Source of the DNA: Alphaproteobacteria bacterium | Lineage (GTDB): Bacteria; Pseudomonadota; Alphaproteobacteria; Acetobacterales; Acetobacteraceae | Assembly: GCA_016869735.1 (NCBI GenBank) | Contig: VGDL01000012.1 | Span: 1-64,000 of the forward strand | Direction: 5' to 3' | Length of the DNA: 64,000 nucleotides | Part shown: in pieces, positions 28,149 to 45,000 of the stretch | Numbering within the stretch: position 1 is the first letter of the stretch | How the letters are laid out: every line of letters begins with the position of its first letter | Position numbers and translations under genes: made by a program | The notes under the pieces: generated by a model | What the model was told of the DNA's origin: nothing | The model's input: the letters and a program-made list of their open reading frames with translations, nothing else | Database searches by the model: none

Positions 28149-28898
28149 TCATTTCGCAAGCCATCCGCCATCCACCGGCAGTGCAATGCCTGTGGTGAAA
28201 CTTGCCGTATCACTCGCCAGATAGAGCACGCCTTCGGCTACTTCTTCCGGCCTGCCGAAGCGCCCCATGGCATGGCGCGCCCGCGATGCTGCGCGCGCTG
28301 CTTCAGGGTCTGCACGGCGGCCCATGCTGCGCGCAAGCAAGGGCGTATCAATGGCCCCCGGCACAATCGCGTTCACGCGAATATTGTCAGCCACAAAATC
28401 CAGCGCCATGACGCGTGTCAGGCTCAATATCGCGCCCTTGGCAGCGATATAGGCGCTATTGCCAGCGCCACCCGCAATGGCCAGCTGCGAACCGGTTGTG
28501 ATGATCGCCCCGCCGCCTTGGCGCTTCATCGCGGGGATGACAGCGCGCGCCCAAAGCCAGGTGCCGCCAACATGCACGCGAAACACCGCATCCCAATCCT
28601 CAGGCTTGGTATCCAATACGGTGCCGCCCACAGAAAATCCGGCTGTCGCAAACAGGATATCAATGCGCCCGTAATGCTGGATAATGGCAGCCGCATCCTC
28701 ATCAGCGCTGCCTGGGGCGCCAACATCTGAAACCCGTGTCAGCGCACCCCCAATAAGCTTGGCGGTTTCCTCAACCGTTGCGGCATCACGATCCACCAAC
28801 GCAAGCTGCGCGCCTTCTTTGACAAACAATATCGCTGTCGCGCGACCAATACCGGAACCAGCGCCGGTAATGACCGCAATCTTGTCCTTCAAGCGCAT
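28149..28898 (-). CDS. SDR-family oxidoreductase
   Basis: 249-residue classical short-chain dehydrogenase/reductase. NAD(P)-binding TGAGSGIGRATA (about 11-22); Asp at the end of beta2 (ALVDRDAAT) suggests NAD preference. The usual NNAG reads FATAGFS here. Catalytic Ser (TTGSQLAIAG), Tyr and Lys (SAYIAAKGA) are present, and SDTASFTTGIALPVDGGW is the C-terminal block. The substrate is unknown. AGGGGGG lies 6 nt before the ATG. Probably in one unit with the reductase just upstream (24-bp gap). Confidence 0.9.
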   Translation of the reverse strand: MRLKDKIAVITGAGSGIGRATAILFVKEGAQLALVDRDAATVEETAKLIGGALTRVSDVGAPGSADEDAAAIIQHYGRIDILFATAGFSVGGTVLDTKPEDWDAVFRVHVGGTWLWARAVIPAMKRQGGGAIITTGSQLAIAGGAGNSAYIAAKGAILSLTRVMALDFVADNIRVNAIVPGAIDTPLLARSMGRRADPEAARAASRARHAMGRFGRPEEVAEGVLYLASDTASFTTGIALPVDGGWLAK

Positions 28899-28922: not shown

Positions 28923-29861
28923 CTATGTCGGCAAGCGCTTAGCATCGCGCCGTTGTTCGAAAGCCTTGGCATGCAGAAAAGCCGCTTCGTGCAGGATGCT
29001 TGGCAGCCTATGGCGGCGCGCCGCATCCAATAGGAAGCCCAGGATGTGATCCGCTTCGATACGCCCCCCCGCTTCCAGATCCCGTAGCATGGAGGCCGTG
29101 TAGGCGCTGGCCTGATCACCAAAGACACCGCGATATTGCTGCATGAAAGCGTCACTTGCCGGGAAGCCCTCTGCCGCAGCGATGGTGGCATTTGCTTCCA
29201 ATACGCCATGCATAAAGGCCATGCCGCCTGGCGTTCGCGCAATCTCACCAACATTGGCGCGCATCAACACAGTGCAGATGGCACTGGTGCCGAGATGAAC
29301 AAGCTTTTCCCACATCTGCGCCATGATGTCGGGCACCGCAGTCGCCACCATGCCAGGTGCCGCGCTGAAGGCTGCCGCTATGTTCTCAACCCGCGTGGTC
29401 ATGCCGCCGGCGGTCTCGCCAAAGGTCAGCCAGCGCCAATCGTTCAAATGCATGATCGTGCCATCGGGCAATAGGGCCGCTTGGATTTTCGCGATTCCAC
29501 CCAATACGCGATCACGCCCAAAGGCATTGCTCAGCGCCTCGATATGGCTGATGCCGTTCAGCACCGGCAGTATCGCAGTGCGCGCATCCAGTGCCGGGCG
29601 AATGGTTTCAATTGCCTCGGCCAGATCATAGGCCTTGCAGGTCAACAGAAGCGCATCCCAGCCAGGTTTCAGCGCATCTGGCGTAATGCAGCTTACCTTC
29701 GCCTGGTAATCACCAAGCCCGCTCGAAATCCGCAAACCATCGCGGGAAAGCGCCGCAGCGCGCGCGGGCCGCACGAGAAAACAGGGGTCAAGCCCCGCCT
29801 GATGCAAGCGCCCGCCGAAATAGCCCCCCAAGGCGCCTGCGCCCAGAATCAAAATACGCAT
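28923..29861 (-). CDS. Ketopantoate reductase family protein (PanE/ApbA-like)
   Basis: 312 residues. Rossmann motif RILILGAGALGGYFGGRL, then LLLTCKAYDLAEAIETIRP and LPVLNGISHIEAL of the family, with catalytic-Lys region MWEKLVHLGTSAICTV. It may be a true 2-dehydropantoate 2-reductase for pantothenate synthesis or a paralogue acting on another 2-keto acid; context (SDR, glcDE) favours a catabolic paralogue. ATG 29861 has GAGGA upstream; a TTG precedes it by one codon. Confidence 0.85.
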   Translation of the reverse strand: MRILILGAGALGGYFGGRLHQAGLDPCFLVRPARAAALSRDGLRISSGLGDYQAKVSCITPDALKPGWDALLLTCKAYDLAEAIETIRPALDARTAILPVLNGISHIEALSNAFGRDRVLGGIAKIQAALLPDGTIMHLNDWRWLTFGETAGGMTTRVENIAAAFSAAPGMVATAVPDIMAQMWEKLVHLGTSAICTVLMRANVGEIARTPGGMAFMHGVLEANATIAAAEGFPASDAFMQQYRGVFGDQASAYTASMLRDLEAGGRIEADHILGFLLDAARRHRLPSILHEAAFLHAKAFEQRRDAKRLPT

Positions 29862-29990
29862 CAAGTCCTCATGCCACGCAATTCCAGAATGCTAGCGCAA
29901 AGCGCTCGTCCTGCGAAAGGCAGCCAAGCCCGTTACCTTCAGATAATTTCAGGGAGATGCGCATTGCGAAAACCCTGCTATGGTGCGCCC

Positions 29991-31601
29991 ATGCGGAAAT
30001 GGTCCCTTGCCCTTCTTATGCTGCTTGGTGCGGGCGCCGCCTGGTGGGCGGCTGGCCTGCCACGGCCTGGTTTTCTCGAAGCTGAAAGCCGCGTAGGTAC
30101 GCCGCGCCTTAGAACCGCTACGCTTGATCGCGGGTCCATCACGGCGGTTGTGGCGGCGACCGGCACAGTGAACCCGGTGACGCTGGTGCAGGTGGGCAGC
30201 CAGCTTTCCGGGCAAATTCGCGAATTATTGGCTGATTTCAATTCAAAAGTCAGGGCGGACCAGCCCATTGCACAATTGGATACCGCAACGCTTGAAGCCC
30301 GCCGCGCGGCGGCAGACGCTGATGTGCATGCCGCTGCCGCGCAAATCACCGTCTCCCGCGCGCAGGCGGAACGCGCAGCGGCGGATCACGCACAAGCAAA
30401 AGCCCAGATCGAAGGCGTGCGCGCCGCGCTTCTGGGCGCTGAGGCAAGCCTGCGCGATGCGGATGTTGAAGCCACACGCACTGCCGAATTGCGCGCCCGC
30501 GGTGTTGGTACAGAACGCGAAGCCTTGCGCGCCGGCTTCACGGCTGATCGGCTGCGTGCTGCCGTAGCGCAGGCGCAGGCGGATGTTTCGCGTGCTGATG
30601 CAGCACTGCTTGCCGCCGGCGCCACCGCGCGCACAGCGGAAGCTCAGGTGGAAGCGGCCATTGCGGCGCGGGAACAGAAGGTAGCGCAGCTGCGGCAGGT
30701 AGAGGTGGATCTCCGTAACGCCACAATCAAATCACCAATTGATGGCGTGGTTGTATCCCGTAATATAGATGTTGGCCAAACCGTCGCCGCTTCCTTCCAA
30801 TCACCCATTCTGTTCCAGATCGCGGCCAGCCTTGATGAAATGGAAGTGCATGTAACGGTGGATGAAGCTGATATCGGGCGCGTCCGCGCTGGCCAGGAAG
30901 TGACCTTCACCATTGCCGCCTACCCCAATGAAACGCTGCGCGGCCGTGTGAAGGAAATCCGGCTTGCTGCGACCACGGTGCAGAATGTGGTGACCTATAC
31001 GGTGGTGGTGAATACGCTCAACGCTTCTGGCCGCTTACTGCCGGGTATGACGGCGACACTTCGCATCATCACCGATATCCGCAATGACGCTCTTCGCGTG
31101 CCCAATGCCGCACTGCGCTGGCGCCCAGTGGGCAGCACCGGCACTTCAGGCGGCGCCATGCAAGCACAAGCCGGCGGACAGCAAATGGATCAGGCGCTGG
31201 CGCAGCTGACGGATTTGACCGAAGCGCAGCGTAATGAAATTGAAGCCGCGCGTGGGGAAATGCGTGCGCGCATGGCAGCGCTAACGCAGGAACCCGATGC
31301 GCGGCGCCAGCAAGCACAAGCCGCGCGGCAACGCCTGATCGCCCGGCTGAATGCGGTACTGACACCGGACCAACGCGCGCGTCTTGCAGCACTGCGCGGC
31401 AATGCGGCGGCGGGCCAGGCTGGCACAATTTGGGTGCAGGAAGGGGGGGAACCGCCGCGCGCTGTGCAATTGCGCATTGGCATGACCGATGGCAGCGTCA
31501 CGGAAATCCTCAGCGGTGATATCACTGAAGGGACGGTGGTGATCATCGGCCAGGACCGCGCTGGCGCCGTACCGGCTTCTGCTACGCGACGGCTTTTCTG
31601 A
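29991..31601 (+). CDS. macA: MacA-like periplasmic adaptor with LTxxQ insert
   Basis: Membrane-fusion protein linking a MacB-type transporter to an outer-membrane channel. 536 residues: N-terminal TM anchor (~5-22), lipoyl halves (~60-100 and ~245-275), a long helical hairpin (~100-240), beta-barrel (~285-365) and a membrane-proximal domain (VPNAALRWRP near 370). Residues ~383-478 form an extra Gln/Arg-rich helical stretch with two LTxxQ motifs (LTEAQ 409, LTPDQ 457) as in Spy/CpxP, before the barrel resumes at TIWVQEGGEPPRAVQLRIG. The ATG 29991 lies just ahead of the signal anchor; frame upstream of it is antisense to the PanE-like gene. It is 4 bp from the ATPase gene. Confidence 0.88.
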   Translation: MRKWSLALLMLLGAGAAWWAAGLPRPGFLEAESRVGTPRLRTATLDRGSITAVVAATGTVNPVTLVQVGSQLSGQIRELLADFNSKVRADQPIAQLDTATLEARRAAADADVHAAAAQITVSRAQAERAAADHAQAKAQIEGVRAALLGAEASLRDADVEATRTAELRARGVGTEREALRAGFTADRLRAAVAQAQADVSRADAALLAAGATARTAEAQVEAAIAAREQKVAQLRQVEVDLRNATIKSPIDGVVVSRNIDVGQTVAASFQSPILFQIAASLDEMEVHVTVDEADIGRVRAGQEVTFTIAAYPNETLRGRVKEIRLAATTVQNVVTYTVVVNTLNASGRLLPGMTATLRIITDIRNDALRVPNAALRWRPVGSTGTSGGAMQAQAGGQQMDQALAQLTDLTEAQRNEIEAARGEMRARMAALTQEPDARRQQAQAARQRLIARLNAVLTPDQRARLAALRGNAAAGQAGTIWVQEGGEPPRAVQLRIGMTDGSVTEILSGDITEGTVVIIGQDRAGAVPASATRRLF

Positions 31602-31605
31602 TGCC

Positions 31606-32346
31606 ATGACAGTCTTGATTGAAACCATTGGCCTTACCAAGCATTATCAAGCTGGTGAGGGCGTAGTCGCTGCGCTTAAGGATGTTTCGCTTTCAATCAC
31701 GCCTGGAAATTTTGTCGCCGCCATGGGGCCTTCGGGTTCTGGCAAATCCACCTTCCTCAATCTGATCGGCTGCCTGGACAGTGCAACGCACGGCAGCTAT
31801 CGCCTGATGAATGAGGATGTTGCAGCGCTATCACATGATAGGCTTGCTGATCTTCGCAGTCGTCGGCTTGGTTTTGTCTTCCAATCCTTCAACCTTTTGC
31901 CACGTGCCGATGCTTTGGCGAATGTTGAATTGCCATTGATTTATCGCGGCATGCCAAGACGCCAAAGGCGTGAACGTGCGGCGGAGGCTTTGGCAGCAGT
32001 GGGTTTGGCGGATCGTATGCATCACCGCCCAACGCAGCTTTCTGGCGGGCAGCAGCAGCGTGTGGCGATTGCGCGCGCCATTGTCGGCAGCCCTGATCTG
32101 ATCCTGGCCGATGAACCAACTGGCGCGCTGGATACCCGCACCGGGCTTTCCATCATGGCGCTGTTTCAGGCGCTTAATCAGGGTGGCGTTGGCATTCTGA
32201 TGGTGACGCATGATCCTGATGTTGCGCGCTATGCCGAACGTGTCCTGCGCTTTCGTGATGGACGATTGATTGCGGATGAAACGCAAATCCCCGCCAATGT
32301 GGCCAAGGCGCTTGAAGCCTTGCCGGAAGCGGATGATGCGGCATGA
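31606..32346 (+). CDS. ABC transporter ATP-binding protein, MacB/LolD type
   Basis: 246 residues. Walker [11 protein letters not shown]-loop [11 protein letters not shown], signature [15 protein letters not shown], Walker [13 protein letters not shown] and H-loop VTHDP are all intact. Belongs to the MacB/FtsE/LolD mechanotransmission class, here split from its permease, which overlaps by 4 bp (ATGA). Powers export or extraction through the adjacent MacA and permease. Confidence 0.93.
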
Positions 32347-33620
32347 CAAGTCCTTTGCCACCCATAATGTCCACCGCAAGACGCGGCATTGATGTACTGG
32401 AAGCCTTGCGCGGCGCGCTTGCCGCGCTTTCGGCGAATTTTCTGCGCTCCATTCTGACAGCGCTTGGTATTTTCATCGGTGTGGCAGCGGTGATCGCGAC
32501 AGTTGCCGTGGGGGAAGGCGCGCGTCGGCAGGTGCTCGCGCAAATCCAATCCTTGGGTGCCAATCTTCTGATTGTATGGGGCGGCAGCGCCACCATGGGC
32601 GGTGTGCGGCTGGGTGCAGGCGGGCGTTCCAATCTTTCCTGGGATGACGCGGCAGTGATTGCGCGGGAGATTCCGGAGGTGCAAGTCGCGGCAGGGTCCA
32701 TCCGCCAAACCTTCCAGGTGGTGGCCGGCAATCAGAATTGGTCCACCATCGTCTTGGCGACCGAGCCAGATTACTTCATCGCCCATGAATGGGTGGCCGA
32801 TGGCGGGCGCCTGTTTTCCCCCGAGGAAGCTGCTGGCGGCCGCAAGGTGGTGATCCTGGGTGCAACCGTGGCCGAGATGCTTTTCGCCGAGGAAGACCCG
32901 GTAGGCCGCGAAATTCGTATCAGGCAAACACCCTTCGAAGTGATTGGCATTATGGCCCGCAAGGGCCAGAACCCTACAGGCCAGGATCAGGATGATACGG
33001 TTTTTGTGCCCTATTGGACCGCGCGCCGCAGCGTCATGGGCGCATCGCGCGCCAATGCGCGGCAGGTGGGCGTGATCTCGGTCAAGGTGCATGAGGGTGA
33101 GGATATGGCAGCCGCAGAAGATGCCATCCGCGCCCTGATGCGCCAACGCCATCGCGTGGCGGCCAATGAACCGGATAGCGTTTCCATCCGCAATCTTTCG
33201 GATATCCAGGCAACGCGCGATGCCTCGGCGCGCACACTTTCGGCGCTACTTGCGTCGGTCGCGGCGGTATCGCTGCTGGTGGGCGGCATTGGTGTCATGA
33301 ACATTATGCTGGTGAGCGTGACAGAGCGCACGCGTGAAATTGGCCTCAGGCTCGCGATCGGTGCGCGACGGCGGGATGTGCTGGCGCAATTCCTGCTGGA
33401 AGCGGTGATGCTGGCGCTGCTCGGCGGCGCGGCTGGCGTGCTGGCGGGCATGGCGCTGTCGCATATCCTGGCGGATGTGGCGGGCTGGCCTGTGCTGGTC
33501 CGGGCCGATGCGGTGCTGATCGCTGTTGGGGTTTCAGCGTTGACGGGCCTGTTTTTTGGCTATTGGCCCGCACGCCGTGCCGCGCATCTGGATCCGATAA
33601 CGGCGCTACGGCACGAATAA
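32343..33620 (+). CDS. macB: ABC transporter permease, MacB/FtsX type
   Basis: 425 residues. One N-terminal TM (NFLRSILTALGIFIGVAAVI) is followed by a large MacB periplasmic core (~70-280) and three C-terminal TMs (~297-320, 345-375, 385-410) with the FtsX block MLVSVTERTREIGLRLAIGA and the terminal WPARRAAHLDPITALRHE. Together with the ATPase it forms a split MacB. No outer-membrane TolC gene is in the window. Confidence 0.9.
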   Translation: MTSPLPPIMSTARRGIDVLEALRGALAALSANFLRSILTALGIFIGVAAVIATVAVGEGARRQVLAQIQSLGANLLIVWGGSATMGGVRLGAGGRSNLSWDDAAVIAREIPEVQVAAGSIRQTFQVVAGNQNWSTIVLATEPDYFIAHEWVADGGRLFSPEEAAGGRKVVILGATVAEMLFAEEDPVGREIRIRQTPFEVIGIMARKGQNPTGQDQDDTVFVPYWTARRSVMGASRANARQVGVISVKVHEGEDMAAAEDAIRALMRQRHRVAANEPDSVSIRNLSDIQATRDASARTLSALLASVAAVSLLVGGIGVMNIMLVSVTERTREIGLRLAIGARRRDVLAQFLLEAVMLALLGGAAGVLAGMALSHILADVAGWPVLVRADAVLIAVGVSALTGLFFGYWPARRAAHLDPITALRHE

Positions 33621-33682
33621 CCCCCTTCCGTTCCGGCGCTGCGCGCGGCAGGATTGCGCAGAAGCCAATCAAGGGGAAAGCC

Positions 33683-34609
33683 ATGACCAAGGTCATCATC
33701 ACCTGCGCCGTGACGGGTGCAATCCACACGCCTTCCATGTCGGATTACCTGCCGATCACGCCGAAGGAGATTGCGGAGCAATCCATCGCCGCGGCGGAAG
33801 CGGGCGCTTCCATCATCCATTTGCATGCGCGCGATCCGGAAAATGGCCAACCGACGCCTGACCCCAAGGTCTTCATGCAGTTCCTGCCGGTGATCAAGCA
33901 ATCCACCGATGCGGTGATCAATATCACTACCGGCGGCGGGCTTGGCATGACTTTGGATGAAAGGCTGGCGGCGCCTTTGCTGGCAAAGCCTGAAATGTGC
34001 AGCCTGAATATGGGCTCGATGAATTTCAACATCGCGCCGTCGGCCGCGCGGGTGAAGAAATTCAAATATGATTGGGAAAAGCCCTATCTGGAAGGCACCA
34101 CCAATTACATCTTCCGCAATACCTTCCAGGATATCGAACAGGTCGTGGAACGGCTTGGCAAGGCGCATGGCACGCGCTTTGAATTCGAATGCTACGATGT
34201 TGGGCATTTGTACAATCTGGCCCATATGCTGGACCGCAAGATTGTCGAACCGCCGCTATTCACCCAAACCATTTTCGGCATTCTGGGCGGCATCGGCGCG
34301 GAACCGCGCAACCTGATGTTCATGAAGGAAACGGCAGATCGGCTTTTCGGCAAGGATTATGTTTGGTCCGTGCTGGCGGCGGGGCGCAACCAAATGCCCT
34401 TCACCACCATGGCCGGCATGATGGGCGGCAATGTGCGCGTTGGGCTGGAAGACAGCCTTTGGCTCGGCAAGGGCGTGCCGGCCAAGACAAACGCTGAACA
34501 GGTCGCGAAAATCCGCCGCATCCTGGAAGAACTCAGCCTGGAAATCGCCACACCGGCGGAAGCGCGCGAGATGCTGAAGCTCAAGGGCGGCGATCTCGTC
34601 GGTTTCTGA
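33683..34609 (+). CDS. BKACE-family beta-keto acid cleavage enzyme
   Basis: 308 residues from ATG 33683 with AAGGGG upstream. DUF849/Kce TIM barrel: VIITCAVTGAIHTPSMSDYL, zinc-binding ASIIHLHARDPENGQPTPD, VINITTGGGLGMTLDER, FEFECYDVGHLYNLAHML and NVRVGLEDSLWLGKG. Family enzymes condense a beta-keto acid with acetyl-CoA to give acetoacetate and a new acyl-CoA. The substrate side chain cannot be read from sequence. First gene of a five-gene operon; the ThDP enzyme follows after 24 bp. Confidence 0.9.
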   Translation: MTKVIITCAVTGAIHTPSMSDYLPITPKEIAEQSIAAAEAGASIIHLHARDPENGQPTPDPKVFMQFLPVIKQSTDAVINITTGGGLGMTLDERLAAPLLAKPEMCSLNMGSMNFNIAPSAARVKKFKYDWEKPYLEGTTNYIFRNTFQDIEQVVERLGKAHGTRFEFECYDVGHLYNLAHMLDRKIVEPPLFTQTIFGILGGIGAEPRNLMFMKETADRLFGKDYVWSVLAAGRNQMPFTTMAGMMGGNVRVGLEDSLWLGKGVPAKTNAEQVAKIRRILEELSLEIATPAEAREMLKLKGGDLVGF

Positions 34610-34633
34610 AGCAAAAAATAGGGAGGCCGCGCC

Positions 34634-36310
34634 ATGGCCGAGAAATACACCGTCGCTGATCTTGTGGCGGAATTCCTGCCGCAGATTGGTGTTGCGACCG
34701 TCTTCGGCATTGTATCCGTGCATAATATCCCAATGCTGGATGCAATCGGTCAGCGCAATCGCCTGCGCTATGTGAAGGCGCGTGGTGAGGTGGGCGGTGC
34801 CCACATGGCTGACGCTTATGCGCGCGTCACCGGCCATTTGGGCGTGATCTTCACCAGCACGGGGCCAGGTATGGCCAATGCGATTCCTGGCCTGGTGGAA
34901 GCGCGCTTTGCCGGCAGCCCGGTGCTGCACATCACGGGCCAGACCGCGACGCGCTTCATTGATCGTGATGTCGGGACGGTGCATGACGTGCCAGGCCAAA
35001 CGCAAGCTTTGGCCGCCGTCTGCAAGGCCGCCTATCGCGTGCGCAGCGCCAATGAGGCGTTTGGCGTTCTGGTGCGCGCGGCAGCCGAGGCGCTCTCAGC
35101 CCCACGTGGCCCGGTTTCGGTCGAAATCCCGATTGATTTGCAGCGCACGCCCATCGCGCGCCCTGCTGGGTTGGATTCCTTGGTGCTGCCCATCACCGCG
35201 CCGCTGCCGCCCAATCCGGCGGAATTGGATGAAGCCGTTGCCATCCTGTCAAAGGCCAAACGCCCCATGCTGTGGCTTGGCAATGGCGCGAAGCAGGCCG
35301 GCGCGGAAGCGGCGCGCTTGATGGCGCTTGGCTTCGGTGTGGTCTCATCCTGGAATGGCCGCGGCATTAGCCCCGAAGATCACCCCATGAGCCTTGGTGC
35401 GCTGCATGGCAATGGATCACCGCGCGTGCAAGAATTCTATGGCTCGGTGGATGCCATGCTGGTCGCGGGATCACGGCTGCGCGGGCATGAGACGATGGAT
35501 TTCAACATGAAGCTGCCGCAAACGCTGATCCGTGTGGATGGCGATGCGGCGGCCAATGGGCGCGGCTATGCTTCTTCCCTGTTCCTGCATGGCGATGCGG
35601 CTTTGACCATGGCGGCGCTTGCGGATCGGCTGGCGGGCAAGATGGCGGTCGATCCGGGCTTCGCCACTGATTTCGCCGCGCTGAAATCCCGCGCCGGGCA
35701 GGAATATCGCGAAACACTCGGCCCCTATCAGGGCTTTCCGGATGCGGTGCGCGCCGCGCTGCCACGCGATGGGGTTTGGGTGCGCGATATCACCATTTCA
35801 AACTCCACCTGGGGCAATCGCATTTTCCCGATTTATGACCCGCGCAATGCGGTGCATCCGGTGGGGGCGGCGATTGGTCCCGGCCTGGCGCTGGGCATCG
35901 GTGCCGCGCTTGGTGCTGGTGGGCGCAAGACGATTACCATGGTGGGTGATGGTGGCTTCGCACTCGGCATGAATGAGTTGTGGGCCGCCACACAGGAAAA
36001 GGCCGAATTGGTCACCATGGTGATGAATGATCGCGGCTATGGCGTGATCCGCCACATCCAGGATGCTGTGGCCGATGGGCGTTTGTTTGGTGATGATATC
36101 CTGAACCCCAATCTCGAAGGTTTGGCTGCCCTTGCTGGTATGCCCTACTTCCGCATCAGCAAGGCGGAAGACGTCACTGAAGTGCTGAAAAAAGCCCTCG
36201 CGGTTTCCGGCCCTGCCTTGGTGGAGGTTGACATGATCGCCATCGGGCCCTTCCCGCCCTATGCGCCCTTCAACACCATGGGCAAGCACGCGGAACGCGC
36301 GGCGCGTTGA
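34634..36310 (+). CDS. Thiamine diphosphate enzyme, acetolactate synthase-like
   Basis: 558 residues with PYR (~5-170), central (~195-330) and PP (~370-535) domains. Catalytic Glu52 in VKARGEVGGAHMADAYAR; the ThDP/Mg motif starts at GDG 438-440 and closes with MNDRGYG (Asn-Asp in place of the usual Asn-Asn). It is likely a decarboxylase, carboligase or C-C lyase of 2-keto acids (benzoylformate decarboxylase/ALS superfamily). There is no regulatory subunit gene, so anabolic acetolactate synthase is unlikely. Cotranscribed with BKACE. Confidence 0.88.
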   Translation: MAEKYTVADLVAEFLPQIGVATVFGIVSVHNIPMLDAIGQRNRLRYVKARGEVGGAHMADAYARVTGHLGVIFTSTGPGMANAIPGLVEARFAGSPVLHITGQTATRFIDRDVGTVHDVPGQTQALAAVCKAAYRVRSANEAFGVLVRAAAEALSAPRGPVSVEIPIDLQRTPIARPAGLDSLVLPITAPLPPNPAELDEAVAILSKAKRPMLWLGNGAKQAGAEAARLMALGFGVVSSWNGRGISPEDHPMSLGALHGNGSPRVQEFYGSVDAMLVAGSRLRGHETMDFNMKLPQTLIRVDGDAAANGRGYASSLFLHGDAALTMAALADRLAGKMAVDPGFATDFAALKSRAGQEYRETLGPYQGFPDAVRAALPRDGVWVRDITISNSTWGNRIFPIYDPRNAVHPVGAAIGPGLALGIGAALGAGGRKTITMVGDGGFALGMNELWAATQEKAELVTMVMNDRGYGVIRHIQDAVADGRLFGDDILNPNLEGLAALAGMPYFRISKAEDVTEVLKKALAVSGPALVEVDMIAIGPFPPYAPFNTMGKHAERAAR

Positions 36311-36315
36311 AGACC

Positions 36316-37059
36316 ATGATGCAACCGCACATCATCTCCCATCGCGGCGGCGCCTATCTTTGGCAGGAAAATAGCCTCCTCGCCTTTCGCCAGAGCCTGG
36401 CTTTGCCGGTTGAGGTTCTGGAATGCGATGTGCACCCCTCTGCCGATGGCGTGCCCATGGTGCATCATGATGCAACGCTGGAACGCATGACGGACCTTGC
36501 CGGGCCTTTGGTGGCGCGCAGTGCGGCTGAACTTGGCAAGGCACGGTTTCGCGGCGCGCCTGATCAAACCATCCCGACACTCTCCGCGCTGGCGCGGCTT
36601 GTTGCACCCAGCGATAAATTGCTACGCGTGGAAGTGAAGGGGGACCGCGACCACAAACCCTATCCGGATTTCCTGCCGTGCGTGCTTGGCGTGCTGGAAG
36701 CCGAAGGCATGCTCACGCGCAGCATCATCATCGCCTTTCATGGCGGCACGGCAGCGGCCGCAGCGCAGGAAAAGCGCTTGGCCGGCGCGATTTGGCTCGT
36801 GAATAGCGCCATCCTTGCAAGCCTGGGGCCGGATGCCTGCATGGCGGCAGCACGCGCGCTTGGCGTGACGGGGTGTGAGTGTTCCATGGGCGATGTCACA
36901 CCCGCCTTCATCGCCGCCGCGCGCAAGTTGGGCCTCACCACCGGTGTCTGGGCGGCCAATCATCATGCGGAGATTGAAAAGGCGCTTGATCTCGGCATGG
37001 ATGCCTTCGCCACTGATGATCCACCGCTGGCGATTGAACTCCGTAAGGCGCGCGGCTGA
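36316..37059 (+). CDS. Glycerophosphodiester phosphodiesterase family protein
   Basis: About 247 residues. GDPD TIM barrel: HIISHRGGAYLWQENSLLAF with the HRG...EN active site, LECDVHPSADGVPMVHHDAT with the metal-binding ExD and general-acid His, then RVEVKGD and GVWAANH. Cleaves a glycerophosphodiester to an alcohol and glycerol-3-phosphate. The preceding stop overlaps an in-frame TTG at 36307, but ATG 36316 or 36319 is more likely. No signal peptide, so cytoplasmic action is inferred. It ends within the start of the next gene (TGATG). Confidence 0.88.
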   Translation: MMQPHIISHRGGAYLWQENSLLAFRQSLALPVEVLECDVHPSADGVPMVHHDATLERMTDLAGPLVARSAAELGKARFRGAPDQTIPTLSALARLVAPSDKLLRVEVKGDRDHKPYPDFLPCVLGVLEAEGMLTRSIIIAFHGGTAAAAAQEKRLAGAIWLVNSAILASLGPDACMAAARALGVTGCECSMGDVTPAFIAAARKLGLTTGVWAANHHAEIEKALDLGMDAFATDDPPLAIELRKARG

Positions 37060-38210
37060 TGCGCATTGCCGCGCTGGATTTTCTGGGCGTGAATGTCACG
37101 CCCAAGACCAATTGGTGCTTTGTGGTGCTACGCCTGGAAGATGGCCGCACCGGCATTGGTGAAATCACGCTGGCGGATCACGAGGCGTTGCTGGAAGCCG
37201 AAGTGGCGCGCGTATCGGCAACGCTGAAGGACCAAGATGCCAGCGCGCGCAATCGCCTGGCGCGCCTGCTACCACACACACCGGCGGGCCTTGTCGCGCA
37301 TACGGTGATCTCCGGCTTGGAACAGGCACTTTGGGATGTGGCGGGGCAGGAAGCAGGCCGGCCCATCCATGCCATGCTGGGCGGCGCCTTGCGCGATGCT
37401 GTGCCGCTTTATGCCAATATCAATCGCGGCGCCTCACCGCGCAGCCCCGCAGGTTTTGCTGACGCTGCGAAGCGCGCGGTGGCGGCCGGCTTTCGTGCGG
37501 TGAAACTGGCACCTTTTGAACCCATGGTCTGGGAAGATGCGGCGGAGCCATCACAACGCGTGGCTTACGCGGAAGGTCTTGCGCGGATTGCAGCAGTGCG
37601 GGACGCGGTAGGTAGCGCGATTGACATTATAGTGGATGCGCATTGGCGCTTTTCCCCCGGTGGCGCGGCGGCGCTGATCCGTGATGTCGCGCCCTTCAAC
37701 CTGTTCTGGCTTGAATGCCCGGTCGCTGAGGCAAATCACACCGCCATCACGCGTTTGCGCGGCATGGCGAATGATCGCGGCATGCGCTTGGCCGGCGCTG
37801 AAACACTTGCCGGGCTTGGCGCCTATCGCCGCATCATCGAAGTCGGCTGCTATGATGTGCTGATGCCAGACATCAAATATGCCGGCGGGCATGAGGAGAT
37901 TCGCCGCATCGCCGCCCTTGCGCAAACCGCGGGGATTGAGATTGCGCCGCATAATCCAACAGGTCCGATCTGCCATGCGCATTCCGTGCATCTTTGTGCA
38001 ACCTTGCCCAATCTTTTGCCGCTTGAAGTGCAATTCGGCGAAACGGAGCGTTTCTTCACCATGATCACCGGCCACGATCTGCGCTTTCAACAAGGCAACG
38101 CCAGCCTGCCGCAAGCGCACGGTCTTGGCGTAGAATTAGATGAAGCAGGCGCGCGCCTTTCCCCCTGGCAACCCATGGCGCAGCCCTGGCTGGACCCGAG
38201 GCTCGGCTGA
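37059..38210 (+). CDS. Enolase-superfamily dehydratase/racemase (MR-MLE family)
   Basis: 383 residues. Capping domain (~1-125), then barrel with Lys in FRAVKLAPFEP, metal ligands in IIVDAHWRFS (Asp), FWLECPV (Glu) and LAGAETLAG (Glu), and an Asp-His dyad in MPDIKYAGGHEE and IAPHNPTGPI. That dyad pattern resembles galactonate dehydratase-like acid sugar dehydratases of the mandelate racemase subgroup. The substrate is unknown. It overlaps its neighbours by 1 bp on each side (TGATG junctions), so translation is coupled. Confidence 0.88.
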   Translation: MRIAALDFLGVNVTPKTNWCFVVLRLEDGRTGIGEITLADHEALLEAEVARVSATLKDQDASARNRLARLLPHTPAGLVAHTVISGLEQALWDVAGQEAGRPIHAMLGGALRDAVPLYANINRGASPRSPAGFADAAKRAVAAGFRAVKLAPFEPMVWEDAAEPSQRVAYAEGLARIAAVRDAVGSAIDIIVDAHWRFSPGGAAALIRDVAPFNLFWLECPVAEANHTAITRLRGMANDRGMRLAGAETLAGLGAYRRIIEVGCYDVLMPDIKYAGGHEEIRRIAALAQTAGIEIAPHNPTGPICHAHSVHLCATLPNLLPLEVQFGETERFFTMITGHDLRFQQGNASLPQAHGLGVELDEAGARLSPWQPMAQPWLDPRLG

Positions 38211-39115
38211 TGCCGCTTTGGGTTGCCGCCACTGTTACCGCCGCGCTGTTTCAAACCTGGCGCACGGCGCTCCAGCAAAGGCTGCGCGGGCAGCTTTCCG
38301 TCAATGCCGCTGCCGTGGTGCGCTATCTTTACGGCGTGCCCGTGGGTTTGCTGCTGGTGGGGCTATATTTACTGATCTTTGGTGGAGCACTTTCCACGTC
38401 GACACCGATGTTCTTCCTCTACGCCGCGCTCGGTGGGCTTGGGCAGATTATCGGCACCAATCTGTTGATCATGTCCTTTGCGCATCGTGGCTTCGCGGTC
38501 GGCACCGCTTACGCCAAGACGGAAGCGGTACAGGCGGCCTTTCTGGCGCTCCTGTTGCTGGGTGAGAATTTCGCGCCCCTCGCCTGGGCGGGCATTGCGG
38601 TTTCAGTGGGCGGCACGCTCTATCTTTCGCTCGCTGGCCGCGTTGGTTCGGTTGGTGAGATGCTGCGCGCCACGGTGCAGCCCGCTGCCCTTTGTGGCCT
38701 TGGGGCAGGTTTTGCGTTCGCGCTTTGTGCGCTTGCTATTCGCGCAGCAACGCAGGAATTACAGGGGCCGGATGTTGTGCTGCGGGCGCTGGAAACGCTC
38801 GTGGTCATCAATGTCATGCAGACCATCATGCAGGGTGGTTGGCTGGTATTGCGCGAACCCGCCAGTATCCGCGCGGTCTTTGCCACCTGGCGATCTTCGG
38901 CGCAGGTGGGCGCGCTTTCAGCTTGCGGTTCCGCCTGCTGGTTCACAGGCTTCGCACTCGCCCCCGTTGCGCTGGTGCGTGCTGTCGGTCAGGTGGAAAT
39001 TCTTTTCACGCTGCTCTTCAGCAAGTTCTTCCTGAAGGAGAAAATGAAGCGCAGCGACATTATCGGTGCGCTTGCCGTTGTAGCCGGCGTGGTGCTGGTA
39101 CTGATTGGAAGGTAG
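38210..39115 (+). CDS. EamA/DMT-superfamily transporter
   Basis: 301 residues, ten predicted membrane helices in two EamA repeats. The motif FSKFFLKEKMKRSDIIGALA then VVAGVVLVLIGR at the C-terminus is typical. Last gene of the BKACE operon, so it most likely imports or exports the pathway's substrate (inference). A short inverted repeat GTAGC/GCTAC begins at the stop codon but has no T-run. Confidence 0.85.
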   Translation: MPLWVAATVTAALFQTWRTALQQRLRGQLSVNAAAVVRYLYGVPVGLLLVGLYLLIFGGALSTSTPMFFLYAALGGLGQIIGTNLLIMSFAHRGFAVGTAYAKTEAVQAAFLALLLLGENFAPLAWAGIAVSVGGTLYLSLAGRVGSVGEMLRATVQPAALCGLGAGFAFALCALAIRAATQELQGPDVVLRALETLVVINVMQTIMQGGWLVLREPASIRAVFATWRSSAQVGALSACGSACWFTGFALAPVALVRAVGQVEILFTLLFSKFFLKEKMKRSDIIGALAVVAGVVLVLIGR

Positions 39116-39144
39116 CTTTCAGGCTACTGCCGACAGGCAATTGC

Positions 39145-42009
39145 TCAACGCCGCTCCGCCCGCCAGCGCGCCCAGGGTGCGATATCGGGCAGGCGCTGCG
39201 GTGCCGCGGCGGGGCCTGAGAAACGCAGCCCGATATCAGGCGCCTCGGCCACCGGCGGGCGCAGCGCGAAGCCAATATCCAGCGTCGCGCGCGGCAAATC
39301 CACCGAACCCATGATCCGGGCGGAAACCGCGCCCTCGGCCACCAAATTCATCTCCTGCAATGAAAGCCGCCCCGTGCGGATCTGCCAGCCACCTTCAAGC
39401 CGCTCAACCGCCGTTGCGCCGGCCATCAGGGCGCGGCGCAGCGCAGCCTCCGCCGCCACGGGATCAGCAAGGCCAGCCGCAGCATGGGCATCACGCAGCG
39501 ACACCCCGGCCACCACGCCATCCGCAAGCAGGAACCGCCCAGCGCCTTCCAATGAAGAAACCAGCGCTGCGGGCGCATGCCCAGAAGCCGCAAGCCGCCC
39601 GGCCAAGGCAATGCGGCCCGCCGCCAGGTCCAGCGGCTGGTCAAAGATCGGGTGGGCCAGGCTCGCGCCCGTAATTTCGAAATTCGCTTCAAGCCGCGGC
39701 GGCTGCGCGCTTGCATCCAAGGCGCCGCGCCCTTCAATTTGGCCGCCGGCAAGCGCGGCACGAAAGGCATCCAGCCGCAACTGTCCGGCTTCCAACACCA
39801 GCGCGGCTTCGGCATTCTCCACAGGCGGCAGGCCCAGCACCGCGATACGCGCGGCATTCAAGGCCAAGCTGCCATCCAAACCTGCCAGAACCGCCAAGGG
39901 CAGCGGTTCCTGATCGTTCAGTTCCAGCCCTGGCAGAGCCAGATTATCTGCCGCAAGGCGAAGTTCCAGCCTGGGCCGCGCGCCTGCCATATTAAGCCGC
40001 GCGTCACCTGAAGCCCGGCTTTCCGCCACAACCAGCGTAAAAAGCGGCAAGGTGAAGACCCCACCTTCCCCCGCCATGCGCGCAATAAAGGAAGCCGAGC
40101 CTTCGCCCATCCAGCCCGGCTCCGCCCGGCCAAAAACCTGGGCGTAAAGCCGCGCCGCACTCGGGTGGCGGAAGGTCAGGCTGCCTTCGCCGCGCGCCCT
40201 TGGCAGATCAAGTACCGCATTGGCATCAAGCCGGGCATCTTCCAGCGCGACTTCGGCAATAAGGGTCAGTGCCTCAGCCGCGCCATTGCCACGAAACCGG
40301 AGCGAAGCCGGCAGTGCCGCCAATCCGGCCGGCAGATGCAGCCCTTCAAGGATCAGCGGCGGCAGCGCGCTTGCCGACGGGGCGGCGATTTCCAGGACAA
40401 GATCGGCAAGGCTGAGTGATGCGCCCAAACCAATGCCACCGCTGAAGGCTAGACTGGCATGGCCCTGGCGGGCGGAAAGCCGCCGTAGTGCAAGCTGCCC
40501 GGCTTCCAACCTGGCATCCAGAACAACACCTTCCAGCGCCTGGCCCTGCCATTCAAGCCGACCCGCTGTCAGGCGCAGATTGGCATCAAAACCTTGCAGC
40601 GCTTCATGCGTGGCCTGCCAATTCAGGTTTTCAGCCAGCAGCCCATCCAGCGCCAGCGCATCAATGGAAAGCCCCAGCCCCAGCGCGGGCCGCGCCCCCA
40701 GCCGCAAAGCGCCCGCCCCCGCATAGCGCCCACCATCCAGCAGTAGGGAAAACTCCGGCGCTTCGATCAGATTGGGTTCCAAAACCAGGCGCCCCCGACC
40801 TTCAAAGCGGCGCAGCATTGCGGGGTCTGGTGCCACCACCGGAACGCCAAAGGCGGCAAGGCTATCGCGCAGGCTTTGGCCCGTGATGCTGAAGGCCAGT
40901 TCCAGCTTTTCGCCAAGTGCCGCACCGCGCGCTTCAAGCTCAGCATCACCGGGCAAAATTGCCGCGATATCCGTGAGCGTCATGCGCGCCCCTTCGCGGG
41001 CGATGCCGGCCTTGAAGCGGCGCAATTCATGCCCCTGCCAGCGCGCGACCTCTGCCGCGATAACCAGCACAATCGGGAAGGGCCAATCACGCGCGGCGCG
41101 CATGGCGCCAATCCAGGGGTCCAGATCCAGCCGGTTCATGGTGATGGCAAGATCCATCCTCGCCCCGGACACAAGCAGGATTTCGGCTGCGGCGCGGCCG
41201 GCGCCGCCATCAAATTCCACCGCCAGATCGGGGGCGATGATCCGGTCCTCATCCGCGCGCATGCGTCCCGAAATGCGGAAGGGCAATGCCGGCGCCGGCA
41301 AAAAGGCCGAAAGATAAGCGCCAGAGGCTTCAAGCCGCCCCTCATAGCCACCTTCCGGGAGCAAAGCGCCGCGTGTGACCAGCGACGCGCCCTGGCCATT
41401 CAGGCGTAATTCCAAAGTGCCGATGCCATCATAGCCGGGTCGGCCCAGCACGGCCTGGAAGCGCGCTTCGGCCCCCATGTGGGTGAAGCTGCCTTCAAGC
41501 CGCACCGCATCCAGGGGGCCGGGCGCATCCAGACGCGCGGCGACATTTTCCAAGGCAACCTCGCCCAGCGTCACGCGGCTGGCTTCGATGCGCGCGGCGA
41601 AATCGGAAAGCCAAGGCGGTGGACGCAAGGCGCCAGCGGCAGGCAAAGGCCAAGGCAGACGAATATCAGCGCCCACCAGCACCAGGTCACGCGCTTCCAG
41701 CCGCCCGAGCATGAAAGGCAGCAGGCCAAGCTTCAGGCGCAATGTCTGCGCCTTGACGCCAAGGCCGCCTTCCTCCTGCCCCAGATGCACCTCATCTGCC
41801 TCGATCACGGGCTGGGGCAGCAGCACGACGCGCAGCGGCCCCTGTAGCGCAACCGGCCTGCCAAGCCGTTCCGAAGCCAGCGCCGCCAGCCGATTGCGCT
41901 GCCCTTCCCAGGAAATCAGGCGCGGCCCAAACCAGACCGCCGCGAGCACGATCCCGGCAAAAAGTAGCGCGAAGATGCCGCGGCGTGATTTCAGCTTGCG
42001 ATCCCCCAA
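39145..42009 (-). CDS. AsmA-family protein
   Basis: 954 residues. An N-terminal TM (~11-30, [18 protein letters not shown]) is followed by the AsmA N-domain with [19 protein letters not shown] and [10 protein letters not shown], then long repetitive beta-rich sequence and the C-terminal AsmA_2 region (about 780-900; [15 protein letters not shown]). AsmA-like proteins span the periplasm and are implicated in lipid transport and outer-membrane homeostasis. The start overlaps the 3' end of the oxoprolinase gene by 19 bp. Confidence 0.85.
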
Positions 42010-45000
42010 CCACCGCCACCGGGCGTTTCAATGCCAAGTACCTCGCCGGCGGCGAGATGCGCGGAATCACTCCCCTTCAGCCATTGAATGCTGCCATCCG
42101 CGCGTTCCACCCATTGCCGCCCCGCCGCGCCATCGGCACCGCCCTGCAAGCCATGCGGTGGCACATTGCGCCGTGATGCGACAATCACCGCTTCCATCGG
42201 ATGCAGGAAGCGAATGCGTCGGCGTGATCCATCACCACCATGCCAGCGCCCCGCACCGCCTGACCCGCGCCGGATGGAAAATTCCTCAAGCCGCACGGGG
42301 TAGCGGAGCTCCAGGATCTCCGGATCGGTCATGCGCGTATTGGTCATATGGGTTTGCACTGGCCCCGCGCCATTGAAGCCCGGCCCGGCGCCGATGCCAC
42401 CGCAAATCGTCTCGTAATATTGATACCGCGCATCACCAAACAGTAAATTATTCATGGTGGCCTGGGCAGAGGCGCAGGCACCAAGTGCGGCGAGCAGTGC
42501 GTTGCAGGTCATTTGGCTGACCTCGGTATTGCCGGCCACCACCGCCGCACCGGGGCGCGGTGACAGGAAAGTGCCTTCCGGGATGACGATTTCCAAGGGC
42601 TTCAGGCAACCATCATTAAGCGGAATATCCTCACCCACCAGGCAGCGGAAGCAATACAGCACCACCGCGCGGCAGACCGCCGATGGTGCGTTGAAATTGC
42701 TCGGGCGTTGCGGTCCTGTGCCGGTGAAATCAATCACTGCCTTGCGCGCGGCGCGGTCAACGCGGATGGCGACTTTCAGCGGCGCGCCATCATCAATGCT
42801 GGTTTCAAAACGCCCATCGGGGAGTTTTTCCAGGACGCGGCGCACACTTTCTTCGGCATTATCCATCACATGCCGCATATAGGCGCTGACGGTGGCCAAC
42901 CCGTAATCGGCCACGGCGCGGCTCAATTCCTGCACGCCTTTTTCATTGGAAGCGATTTGCGCCTTGATGTCAGCCACATTCACATCCGGGCTGCGCGCGG
43001 GATAACGCGCGCCAGCCAGCAGGGCACGAAACTCCGCTTCCCGGAAATGCCCACCATCCACCAGCAGGAAATCATCAATCACCACGCCTTCTTCTTCCAG
43101 CGTGCGAGACAGCGGCGGCGTGGACCCGGGCGTCAGGCCCCCAATATCGGCGTGATGCCCGCGCGATCCCACAAAGAACAGGATGGATGTGCCCGCCGCA
43201 TCAAAGACCGGCGTGATCACCGTCACATCCGGCAAATGCGTGCCACCATCATAGGGGTTGTTCAGCGCCACCACATCGCCGGGCTTGAGCGTGGCGCCGC
43301 GCGTGCGAATTACAGTGCGCACACTTTCCCCCATGGCGCCAAGATGCACCGGCACATGCGGCGCATTGGCAATCAGCGCGCCGGTCGCATCGAAAATCGC
43401 GCAGGAGAAATCCAGCCTTTCCTTGATATTCACCGAAAGGCTGGTGTTTTGCAGCACCGCGCCGGTTTGCTCGGCAATGCTCATGAACAGATTGTTGAAG
43501 AGTTCGAGCATTACCGGATCGGGCCGATCTGTTGCCGCCACATCCGCCGCGCGCACCCGGGCCGCGATGCGGCGCAGCACCAAGTGATTGCGCGCGGTGA
43601 CTTCCGCTTCCCAGCCGGGTTCGACCACCGTGGTGGCATTGGCTTCGCGCAGCAACGCCGGGCCCTTGATGCGATCCCCCGCGCATAGCGCATCGCAGTC
43701 ATGCACCGGTGCTGCGTGTTCAGCACCGCCGGTGAAAAGGGCGATGGTATCGAGTGGCTTTGGTGCCTCACCGGCCGCACGCGGCGGCAGCGCGGCTTCG
43801 CGCACTTCCTCACCAGGGGCGGTGACTTCCGCGATGCAGGCTTCCACAATCACCTGGCGTTCCAGTGTCGCGAAACCAAAGCGGCGGCGATGCGCTTCGG
43901 TGAAGGCGGCCAATACTTCCTGATGCGCGCCAAACGCCACGGGCAGAAAGGTATCCGTACCGGCATAGCGCAAATGCAGCCGCCGCGCCGCTTGGAGCCT
44001 CGCGGGATCGGCACCTTGGCGCGCCAGTTCTTCCCGCCCCGCTGCCACCAGCGCTTCAAGCCGCGCGGTCAGATCATTGATGGCATCAGCGGTGAAGGGC
44101 GCTTCCACCGCCGCTTCACGGATCACCGCCTGATCCGCGAGGCCCATGCCATAGGCGGAAAGCACGCCGGCAAAGGGATGGATAAACACCGTTTCCATGC
44201 CCAATTCATCAGCAACCAAACAGGCATGTTGCCCGCCCGCGCCGCCGAAGCATTGCAGCGCGAAGCGTGTCGCGTCATGGCCCTTTTGGATCGAAACCTG
44301 CTTGATGGCATTCGCCATATTGGCGACCGCAACACGCAAAAACCCTTCCGCCACCGCACGTGGATCGGGCGCTGGTTTGCCTTGCGCCTTGCCGATTTCA
44401 GCTGCCAAGGCTGCGAATTTCTCAGCAACAATCGCGGCATCCAAGGGCTGGTCACCATGCGGGCCGAAAATCGCCGGGAAATGATGCGGCTGGATCTTGC
44501 CCACCATGACATTCGCATCCGTGACCGTGAGTGGCCCGCCGCGCCGATAGCAGGCAGGGCCAGGCATAGCACCGGCAGAATCCGGCCCCACACGGAAACG
44601 CGCGCCATCAAAATGCAGAATGGAACCACCACCGGCGGCGACCGTATTGATCGCCATCATGGGTGCGCGCATGCGCACGCCAGCAACTTCGGTTTCGAAC
44701 GCACGCTCAAAAGCGCCAGCATAAAGCGCGACATCGGTGGAAGTGCCGCCCATATCGAAGCCGATGATACGTTCAAACCCGCCCATCGCCGCAGTGCGCG
44801 CCGCACCGACAATCCCGCCGGCGGGGCCAGAGAGAATCGCATCCTTGCCCTGGAAATGCCCGGCTTCGGTCAGCCCGCCACTTGATTGCATGAAGTAAAG
44901 CCTGACACCCGGCAATTCCGCCGCCACCTGATCCACATAGCGGCGCAGAATGGGTGACAGATAGGCATCAACAACGGTGGTATCCCCGCGCGGCACAATG

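What the first reader, a model, noticed from the sequence alone, without database searches (positions are those of the whole stretch)
33683..39115. Five-gene catabolic operon of unassigned pathway (BKACE, ThDP enzyme, GDPD, MR-MLE dehydratase, EamA)
Five plus-strand genes are spaced 24, 5, -1 and -1 bp, so they are almost certainly one transcript. The families do different chemistry: acetyl-CoA-dependent beta-keto acid cleavage, ThDP-dependent C-C bond chemistry, phosphodiester hydrolysis, and alpha-proton abstraction/dehydration of an acid. A plausible logic is transport, release of a polyol acid from a glycerophosphodiester, dehydration to a 2-keto acid, ThDP cleavage and BKACE cleavage. I know of no named pathway with this set, so it may be new metabolism. 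Families are from sequence; the pathway order is inference.
Basis: partly seen in the sequence, partly recalled or inferred. Interest (0 to 1): 0.62.

Follow-up and report, generated by a model that had tools for sequence, protein, structure and literature searches.

The report
Young patchwork operon of scattered enzymes
Five ordinary metabolic genes sit head to tail as one probable transcript in one small group of Acetobacteraceae bacteria, but in their closest relatives most of the same genes lie scattered around the genome, so the row looks more like a recently assembled patchwork than a conserved new pathway.

Summary
Coordinates, families and spacing hold: BKACE, ThDP enzyme, GDPD, MR-MLE dehydratase, EamA, gaps 24, 5, -1, -1 bp; all five are under purifying selection. 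The one-pathway reading fares badly. Within the genus the block is intact wherever contigs allow in one subclade (18 genomes with the window; BKACE-ThDP junction seen in 16, contradicted in none). In the sister subclade (16 genomes) ThDP is present in 16, BKACE in 15, MR-MLE in 15, but no two are adjacent: 17 kb or more apart, or on different contigs. Their older neighbours differ. BKACE stands beside MacAB and/or a divergent ApbA/PanE-type gene in three other genera. MR-MLE and EamA are an old pair. ThDP stands without the other four. GDPD has no match above 52% outside the subclade among 200 genomes of the order. ThDP and BKACE orthologs do co-occur strongly while unlinked (37 of 41 and 37 of 40 genomes), but on a tree this is not significant.

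The parts
33683..34609 (+). BKACE (beta-keto acid cleavage enzyme), 308 aa; NCBIfam NF053538 '3,5-dioxohexanoate:acetyl-CoA acetone transferase'
   Evidence: Pfam PF05853 365 bits; NF053538 530.7 bits against cut-off 430; best solved relative by sequence 3e02; dN/dS 0.017-0.027 within the subclade
34634..36310 (+). ThDP-dependent enzyme, 558 aa, NCBIfam NF005470 (PRK07064, no function named)
   Evidence: Pfam N, M and C domains; NF005470 716.6 against cut-off 495; Glu52 invariant in 12 aligned sequences, GDGG at 438 and NDRG at 465; solved relatives reach 170 bits at most
36316..37059 (+). Glycerophosphodiester phosphodiesterase family protein (GDPD), 247 aa
   Evidence: Pfam PF03009 91.5 bits; solved relative 3ks5 122.6 bits; HRGG, ENS, ECD and HHD strings present (their catalytic role is recalled); best match outside the subclade 52% among 200 genomes of the order
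37059..38210 (+). Mandelate racemase/muconate lactonizing enzyme family acid dehydratase, 383 aa, galactonate-dehydratase-like
   Evidence: Pfam MR_MLE_C and MR_MLE_N; NF010624 galactonate dehydratase 193 bits, below its cut-off of 311; closest solved chains 3rr1 (putative D-galactonate dehydratase) and 2qq6, with the VDxH, E, E, D and H positions aligned (their catalytic role is recalled)
38210..39115 (+). EamA-type membrane transporter, 301 aa
   Evidence: Pfam PF00892 59.5 bits; adjacent to the MR-MLE gene also in the sister subclade and in some other genera
30018..33620 (+). MacA (30018-31601), MacB ATPase (31606-32346), MacB permease (32343-33620): upstream neighbours, 62 bp before BKACE, and an older partner of BKACE than the four genes after it
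   Evidence: Pfam HlyD, ABC_tran, MacB_PCD, FtsX; beside BKACE in the 5 genus g9 genomes tested
28923..29861 (-). ApbA/PanE (ketopantoate reductase) family gene, divergent to the row; the BKACE neighbour kept in most genera here
   Evidence: Pfam ApbA 127 bits and ApbA_C 70 bits; divergent to BKACE, or to MacAB-BKACE, in the subclade, g9, g44 and g49
33621..33682 (+). 62-bp leader between the MacB stop and the BKACE start; its last 60 nt match at 52-56 of 60 in nine relatives
   Evidence: the last MacB codons are still readable in two relatives that lack MacAB

Best explanation
A lineage-specific composite operon. In the ancestor of one subclade of a Neoroseomonas-related genus, rearrangement and gene loss put together four formerly separate pieces: the MacAB-BKACE end (with its divergent ApbA/PanE-type gene), a lone ThDP enzyme gene, a GDPD gene, and the old MR-MLE/EamA pair. 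The genes are probably transcribed together and each protein keeps its own job: BKACE transfers an acetyl unit from a beta-keto acid to acetyl-CoA, giving acetoacetate and a new acyl-CoA; the ThDP enzyme acts on a 2-keto acid; GDPD hydrolyses glycerophosphodiesters; the MR-MLE enzyme dehydrates a sugar-type acid; EamA moves a small solute. Shared expression rather than a shared substrate is the likeliest link. Shown: families, spacing, conservation in the subclade, scattered orthologs elsewhere. Inferred: co-transcription, substrates, and the order of assembly.
For: Clade A (18 genomes with the window): BKACE-ThDP junction in 16, ThDP-GDPD in 16, GDPD-MR-MLE-EamA in 15, the rest cut by contig ends, none contradictory; all five complete on one contig in 10. 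Clade B (16 genomes): ThDP 16, BKACE 15, MR-MLE 15, no two adjacent; none of the other four genes lies in any of the 16 ThDP loci. In the single-contig genomes G066 and G132 ThDP, BKACE and MR-MLE lie 0.2 Mb or more apart. MacAB-BKACE in 5 of 5 g9 genomes tested; an ApbA-type gene divergent to it in the same five and directly divergent to BKACE in G167 and G181. MR-MLE/EamA adjacent in 14 of 14 clade B genomes checked. Sampled A (4) and B (8) genomes are sister groups on an RpoB tree (support 100 and 97). At completeness of 97% or more, genomes of A measure 3.25-4.1 Mb (11) and of B 4.2-6.4 Mb (14), which fits the report that smaller alpha-proteobacterial genomes have more and longer operons (PMC3845653, passages). 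dN/dS 0.013-0.118 shows all five are kept.
Against: The block stayed intact in every testable clade A genome despite synonymous divergence of about 0.2-0.75, while MacAB was lost at one edge in three genomes and the window genome differs from its relatives at the other edge: what a functional unit would do, though synteny around the block is also conserved. ThDP and BKACE orthologs co-occur strongly, and MR-MLE shows a weak association with both outside the genus (Fisher p 0.007 and 0.025). Distant paralogs (26-35%) of MR-MLE and ThDP lie within about 8 kb of each other or of BKACE in a few loci: L058, L059, L063, L188, L242.
Confidence: 0.68

Rival explanations
1. A real new catabolic pathway uses all five proteins: uptake by EamA, release of an acid from a phosphodiester by GDPD, dehydration by MR-MLE, ThDP cleavage, BKACE cleavage.
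For: Tight spacing and complete conservation of order in clade A; all genes under purifying selection; weak association of MR-MLE with ThDP and BKACE outside the genus (Fisher p 0.007 and 0.025); distant MR-MLE and ThDP paralogs near each other in a few loci.
Against: Orthologs unlinked in clade B and other genera; only 7 of 23 ThDP-bearing and 6 of 22 BKACE-bearing genomes outside the genus have the MR-MLE ortholog, and on the RpoB tree the independent pairs go 0.1 and 0.0 the same way against 1.5 and 0.8 the other way (too few to test); GDPD is confined to clade A at ortholog level in the sample; the chemistry lacks an oxidation step to a beta-keto acid.
Confidence: 0.1
2. Only BKACE and the ThDP enzyme act together, in an unnamed acid-degrading process spread over the family; clade A merely brought their genes side by side. 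GDPD and MR-MLE/EamA are passengers.
For: ThDP orthologs in 41 and BKACE orthologs in 40 of 200 genomes, 37 shared, Fisher p 3e-32; without the window's genus 19 shared of 23 and 22, p 5e-19. On the RpoB tree no independent pair goes against it.
Against: Tree-aware test not significant (4-5 pairs, 1.5-1.7 the same way, 0 against, median p 0.5); 7 of 200 genomes have one without the other; identity cut-offs were chosen by hand; no linkage of the orthologs outside clade A in the loci examined.
Confidence: 0.17
3. BKACE's working partners are upstream, not downstream: the divergent ApbA/PanE-family reductase, with MacAB in some lineages, makes or removes the keto acid that BKACE handles. This is compatible with the best explanation. 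A further divergent SDR (28149-28898) would join only in clade A, as in the SDR-BKACE deoxyribonate pathway.
For: ApbA-type gene divergent to BKACE or MacAB-BKACE in 15 of 15 clade A genomes whose upstream side was seen, 5 of 5 g9 genomes, G167 and G181; SDR and BKACE serve deoxyribonate use in Pseudomonas simiae (PMC6365646, passages).
Against: No such gene at 50% or more in 14 of 14 clade B BKACE loci and 14 loci of other genera; the SDR at 50% or more was seen only in clade A; ApbA-family enzymes typically reduce 2-keto, not 3-keto acids (recalled); no lactonase in the block.
Confidence: 0.12

Closest known systems
NF053538, 3,5-dioxohexanoate:acetyl-CoA acetone transferase (BKACE family); triacetate acetoacetate-lyase CsTAL of Clostridium scatologenes
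   Same: Score 100 bits over the curated cut-off; same kind of reaction, giving acetoacetate plus a new acyl-CoA
   Different: CsTAL sits in an anaerobic phloroglucinol cluster with PGR, DPGC and TfD (PMC10470551, passages incl. part of the abstract), none of which is in this block; BKACE members are promiscuous (PMC4922564, passages)
Oxidative deoxyribonate pathway (SDR, BKACE, lactonase; Pseudomonas simiae)
   Same: A BKACE proposed to act on a sugar-derived keto acid in a bacterial catabolic operon (PMC6365646, passages)
   Different: No SDR or lactonase inside the block; an SDR lies divergently, beyond the ApbA gene, and at 50% or more only in clade A
NF005470 / PRK07064 thiamine pyrophosphate-binding protein
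   Same: The window ThDP enzyme is a member by score
   Different: The family has no assigned function; 46-50% identical relatives in Paraburkholderia, Burkholderia and Nitratireductor lie in a Rieske-oxygenase/aldehyde-dehydrogenase cluster, unlike here
D-galactonate dehydratase (NF010624, DgoD type)
   Same: Best-scoring named group for the MR-MLE protein; VDxH, E, E, D and H positions align with solved relatives
   Different: 193 bits against a cut-off of 311, so the substrate is not assigned
Newly formed bacterial operons in shrinking genomes
   Same: Formerly separate genes brought into one row, in a lineage with smaller genomes
   Different: The assembly history is reconstructed here only in outline

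Membership tests
NF053538 BKACE | score over curated cut-off (430) | tested here: met
   530.7 bits
NF053538 BKACE | activity on 3,5-dioxohexanoate | not testable with these tools
   needs an enzyme assay
Phloroglucinol/triacetate pathway | BKACE clustered with phloroglucinol reductase, DPGC and TfD | tested here: not met
   none among the five genes or MacAB by family scans; the rest of the genome was not searched
Deoxyribonate oxidative pathway | SDR, BKACE and lactonase clustered | tested here: not met
   SDR only outside the block and divergent (28149-28898); no lactonase among the five genes, MacAB, ApbA and SDR
NF005470 ThDP enzyme | score over cut-off (495) | tested here: met
   716.6 bits
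D-galactonate dehydratase NF010624 | score over cut-off (311) | tested here: not met
   193.1 bits
GDPD (Pfam PF03009) | score over gathering cut-off (23.6) | tested here: met
   91.5 bits; the equivalog NF006989 is not reached, 63.8 against 264
Operon | same strand, short gaps | tested here: met
   24, 5, -1 and -1 bp
Operon | one transcript | not testable with these tools
   no RNA data
Conserved pathway cluster | linkage of the five orthologs kept outside the subclade | tested here: not met
   only the MR-MLE/EamA pair is linked outside it in the loci examined

The most novel reading that the evidence does not exclude
BKACE and the unnamed ThDP enzyme are two steps of an undescribed acid-degrading process common in this branch of Acetobacteraceae, and clade A is a natural case of pathway genes moving from scattered sites into one operon, with GDPD and an acid dehydratase recruited to widen its range.
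Probability: 0.12. Interest if true: 0.5.

Novelty: new member of a known kind. Interest (0 to 1): 0.24.

Why it matters
It warns that tight spacing in one genome does not prove a pathway, and it offers a traceable case of operon birth: the same orthologs exist unlinked in sister species, some of them named strains (Neoroseomonas terrae, N. marina), so both the function of each gene and the benefit of grouping can be tested. The ThDP family (PRK07064) has no known reaction; its co-occurrence with a named BKACE, and the ApbA-type gene beside BKACE in several genera, are usable leads.

Tried and rejected
Phylogenetic profile as proof of a ThDP-BKACE link: the Fisher test is very strong but tree-aware pairs are not significant, so it is kept only as a rival. 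A first RpoB tree was wrong because some rows were translated on the reverse strand, which also lacked stops; it was rebuilt and the first is not used. The tree holds 80 of the 200 genomes and 28 of the 41 ThDP-bearing ones; the window's own RpoB and those of several g9 genomes were not in the capped listing.

Pure deletion of intervening DNA: in G060 and G196 BKACE lies about 21 kb upstream of ThDP on the same strand, and in G081 and G036 MR-MLE lies 17-18 kb downstream, which suggested it. But parts of the DNA in between exist elsewhere in four clade A genomes, and other genera are unlinked, so rearrangement plus loss is favoured. Only 14.4 of about 21 kb and 9.8 of about 18 kb were searched, and the tool scored 40 candidates per genome, so absence there is weak evidence.

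Gene calls in relatives came from a home-made caller, which in several clade B loci chose an antisense ORF over ThDP; positions quoted come from tblastn or the genome search. In one search the MR-MLE cluster was mislabelled EamA; one search corrects it. One search ended in a script error after writing its files, which one search used. Rfam and tRNA searches of the window found nothing. No structure prediction was run. One search for papers holding at least 3 of 6 genus and enzyme terms listed none; no wider claim about print is made. Price et al., 'The life-cycle of operons', was not held and is recalled only.
Full report
OBSERVATION. Pfam confirms BKACE, a three-domain ThDP enzyme, GDPD, MR-MLE and EamA. 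NCBIfam goes further: the BKACE passes the cut-off of NF053538, '3,5-dioxohexanoate:acetyl-CoA acetone transferase' (530.7 against 430), and the ThDP enzyme that of NF005470 (716.6 against 495), a family with no named reaction; GDPD, MR-MLE and EamA stay below the cut-off of every model listed. Promoter-like and terminator-like sites are at the chance rate (3 against 2.7 expected, 11 against 9.7).

ARE THE GENES KEPT? Yes. Against nine relatives of the same subclade dN/dS is 0.017-0.027 (BKACE), 0.025-0.044 (ThDP), 0.060-0.118 (GDPD), 0.072-0.091 (MR-MLE) and 0.013-0.042 (EamA), at dS of about 0.2-0.75. The 60 nt before BKACE match the window at 52-56 of 60, not clearly better than BKACE synonymous sites.

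WHERE THE WINDOW COMES FROM. By its relatives it is an Acetobacteraceae genome near Neoroseomonas. Two records named 'Roseomonas sp.' carry all five genes in a row (L147, L148), and contigs of N. terrae (L149) and N. marina (L183) carry the 79-80% identical ThDP gene without the other four nearby. The genus holds 35 genomes. By protein identity 18, with the window, form clade A (ThDP 96-97%, or BKACE 98% and MR-MLE 93% in G213, where ThDP is cut) and 16 form clade B (ThDP 79-81%); G207, 85% complete, gave no match to any of the three proteins and cannot be placed. On an RpoB tree of 80 genomes of the order, the 4 sampled A and 8 sampled B genomes are sister groups (support 100 and 97).

CONSERVATION INSIDE THE GENUS. 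Clade A: the BKACE-ThDP junction is seen in 16 of 18 (G078 and G212 are cut there by contig ends), ThDP-GDPD in 16 of 18 (G202 and G213 cut), GDPD-MR-MLE-EamA in 15 of 18 (G201 also cut). All five genes are complete on one contig in 10 (G000, G049, G064, G125, G165, G191, G205, G208, G210, G214), and in an eleventh, G209, with BKACE cut by the contig end. No clade A genome contradicts the order. Clade B: ThDP in 16 of 16, BKACE in 15 (not G204), MR-MLE in 15 (not G173), no two of these adjacent. ThDP and BKACE share a contig in 6: about 19-51 kb apart in G060, G196, G199, G127 and G200, 0.2 Mb in G066. ThDP and MR-MLE share a contig in 4: 17-18 kb apart in G081 and G036, 0.2 Mb in G127, over 1 Mb in G066. 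In all 16 clade B ThDP loci fetched, with at least 1.5 kb on each side, none of the other four genes was found. In the 11 clade B genomes of the order sample GDPD matches reach only 41-48%.

OLDER NEIGHBOURS OF EACH PIECE. BKACE: MacA-MacB-MacB' stand beside it in the 5 genus g9 genomes tested (three with about 60-75 bp between, two with about 1-2 kb; two further g9 genomes, whose BKACE is only 60-61% identical, were not tested). MacAB is beside it in none of 16 loci from other genera and none of 14 from clade B. In clade A, MacAB is upstream in 13 genomes (G213 only in part, at the fetched end) and missing in 3 (G049, G206, G078); in two of these the last MacB codons before the BKACE leader can still be read. 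An ApbA/PanE-family gene is divergent to BKACE or to MacAB-BKACE in 15 of 15 clade A genomes whose upstream side was seen far enough, 5 of 5 g9 genomes, G167 (g44) and G181 (g49), but at 50% identity or more in none of 14 clade B and 14 other loci. MR-MLE and EamA: adjacent in 14 of 14 clade B genomes checked (G200 not checked); outside the genus adjacent in 5 of 21 genomes with both orthologs, within 5 kb in 5, far apart or on different contigs in 11. In five clade B loci examined in detail the pair follows TctC-type receptors in five, a family 5 solute-binding protein in four and an amidohydrolase in three, by clustering; Pfam was run on one, L106. ThDP: without the other four orthologs in the clade B and other-genus loci examined. 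GDPD outside clade A reaches 52% at best among 200 genomes, so its origin is open.

WEAK HINTS THE OTHER WAY. Distant paralogs, not orthologs, of the families meet elsewhere: in L242 (G154) two MR-MLE-like stretches (27%) and a ThDP-like one (31%) lie within about 6 kb of BKACE; in L058, L059 and L063 MR-MLE-like stretches (26-29%) lie about 6 kb from ThDP; in L188 one (31%) lies about 1.3 kb from a 35% ThDP relative; and L189 has a GDPD-like stretch (34%) about 6 kb from ThDP. These are large families and no control for chance was made.

HOW IT AROSE. Rearrangement with loss fits best. Of the DNA that lies between BKACE and ThDP in G060 (14.4 of about 21 kb searched) or between ThDP and MR-MLE in G081 (9.8 of about 18 kb searched), a 4.4-kb stretch (76%), a 1.3-kb stretch (72-74%) and a 1-kb stretch (75-77%) are present in each of four clade A genomes, on contigs other than the block's in the window genome; the stretch with the solute-binding protein and amidohydrolase just before MR-MLE gave only short weak hits. 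Clade A genomes of 97% completeness or more measure 3.25-4.1 Mb (11 genomes), clade B 4.2-6.4 Mb (14). Smaller alpha-proteobacterial genomes are reported to have more and longer operons (PMC3845653, passages).

DOES ANYTHING STILL LINK THEM? Across 200 genomes of the order, ThDP orthologs (56% identity or more) occur in 41, BKACE orthologs (72% or more) in 40, both in 37; leaving out the window's genus, 19 are shared of 23 and 22. MR-MLE orthologs (61% or more, 38 genomes) share 24 with ThDP and 23 with BKACE, but only 7 and 6 outside the genus, still a weak association there (Fisher p 0.007 and 0.025). I set the cut-offs from gaps in the identity lists, and the lists were copied by hand. On the RpoB tree only 4-5 independent contrasts lie on well supported branches: BKACE and ThDP go together in about 1.5-1.7 and never apart (median p 0.5), while MR-MLE goes with them in 0.1 or fewer and against in 1.5 and 0.8. 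So the co-occurrence cannot be told from shared ancestry so far, and is kept as a rival.

MECHANISM. BKACE: acetyl transfer from a beta-keto acid to acetyl-CoA (family knowledge; CsTAL turns triacetate and acetyl-CoA into acetoacetate and acetoacetyl-CoA, PMC10470551, passages; family substrates are broad, PMC4922564, passages). MR-MLE: VDxH, two Glu, Asp and His positions align with solved relatives, so proton abstraction and dehydration of a hydroxy acid is likely; the substrate is unknown. ThDP: Glu52 and the GDG...NDRG stretch are present, so 2-keto acid chemistry is likely; the substrate is unknown.

VERDICT. A true, conserved-in-subclade, probably co-transcribed row of genes that are individually ordinary and, apart from the MR-MLE/EamA pair, unlinked elsewhere in what was examined. 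Interest is low to moderate: a tidy case of operon birth and two leads (an unnamed ThDP family; an ApbA-BKACE partnership), not a demonstrated new pathway.

Noticed in passing
window 28923-34609; L120, L226-L229, L231, L232: An ApbA/PanE-family gene divergent to BKACE, with or without MacAB between them, recurs in four genera (clade A of the window's genus, g9, g44, g49). [quoted passage not shown]
   Followed up: partly
L164-L182, L185, L186, L189 around the ThDP gene: 46-50% identical relatives of the ThDP enzyme lie in a large conserved cluster in Paraburkholderia, Burkholderia, Nitratireductor and others, also Roseomonas mucosa: Rieske oxygenase, glyoxalase/dioxygenase-superfamily protein and aldehyde dehydrogenase (Pfam on L172 only), plus by eye an alpha/beta hydrolase, SDRs and an aspartate-dehydrogenase-like protein. 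Probably a ring-degradation pathway.
   Followed up: partly
window 39116-45617: In the nine other clade A loci where the next gene is visible, EamA is followed by a gene of one cluster (ECH_2 family in L038); in the window by a convergent 954-aa AsmA-like ORF and a 1208-aa hydantoinase/oxoprolinase-like ORF (names by eye). The window genome differs right at the block's end.
   Followed up: no
L146 (CAMCZJ010000003.1): A MAG record titled Asaia bogorensis carries MacAB, BKACE, ThDP and GDPD up to its contig end at 90-98% protein identity to the window, so its species label is doubtful.
   Followed up: no
L242 (G154): A BKACE ortholog (77%) with distant MR-MLE-like (27%) and ThDP-like (31%) stretches within about 6 kb: the same families meeting independently, or chance.
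   Followed up: no
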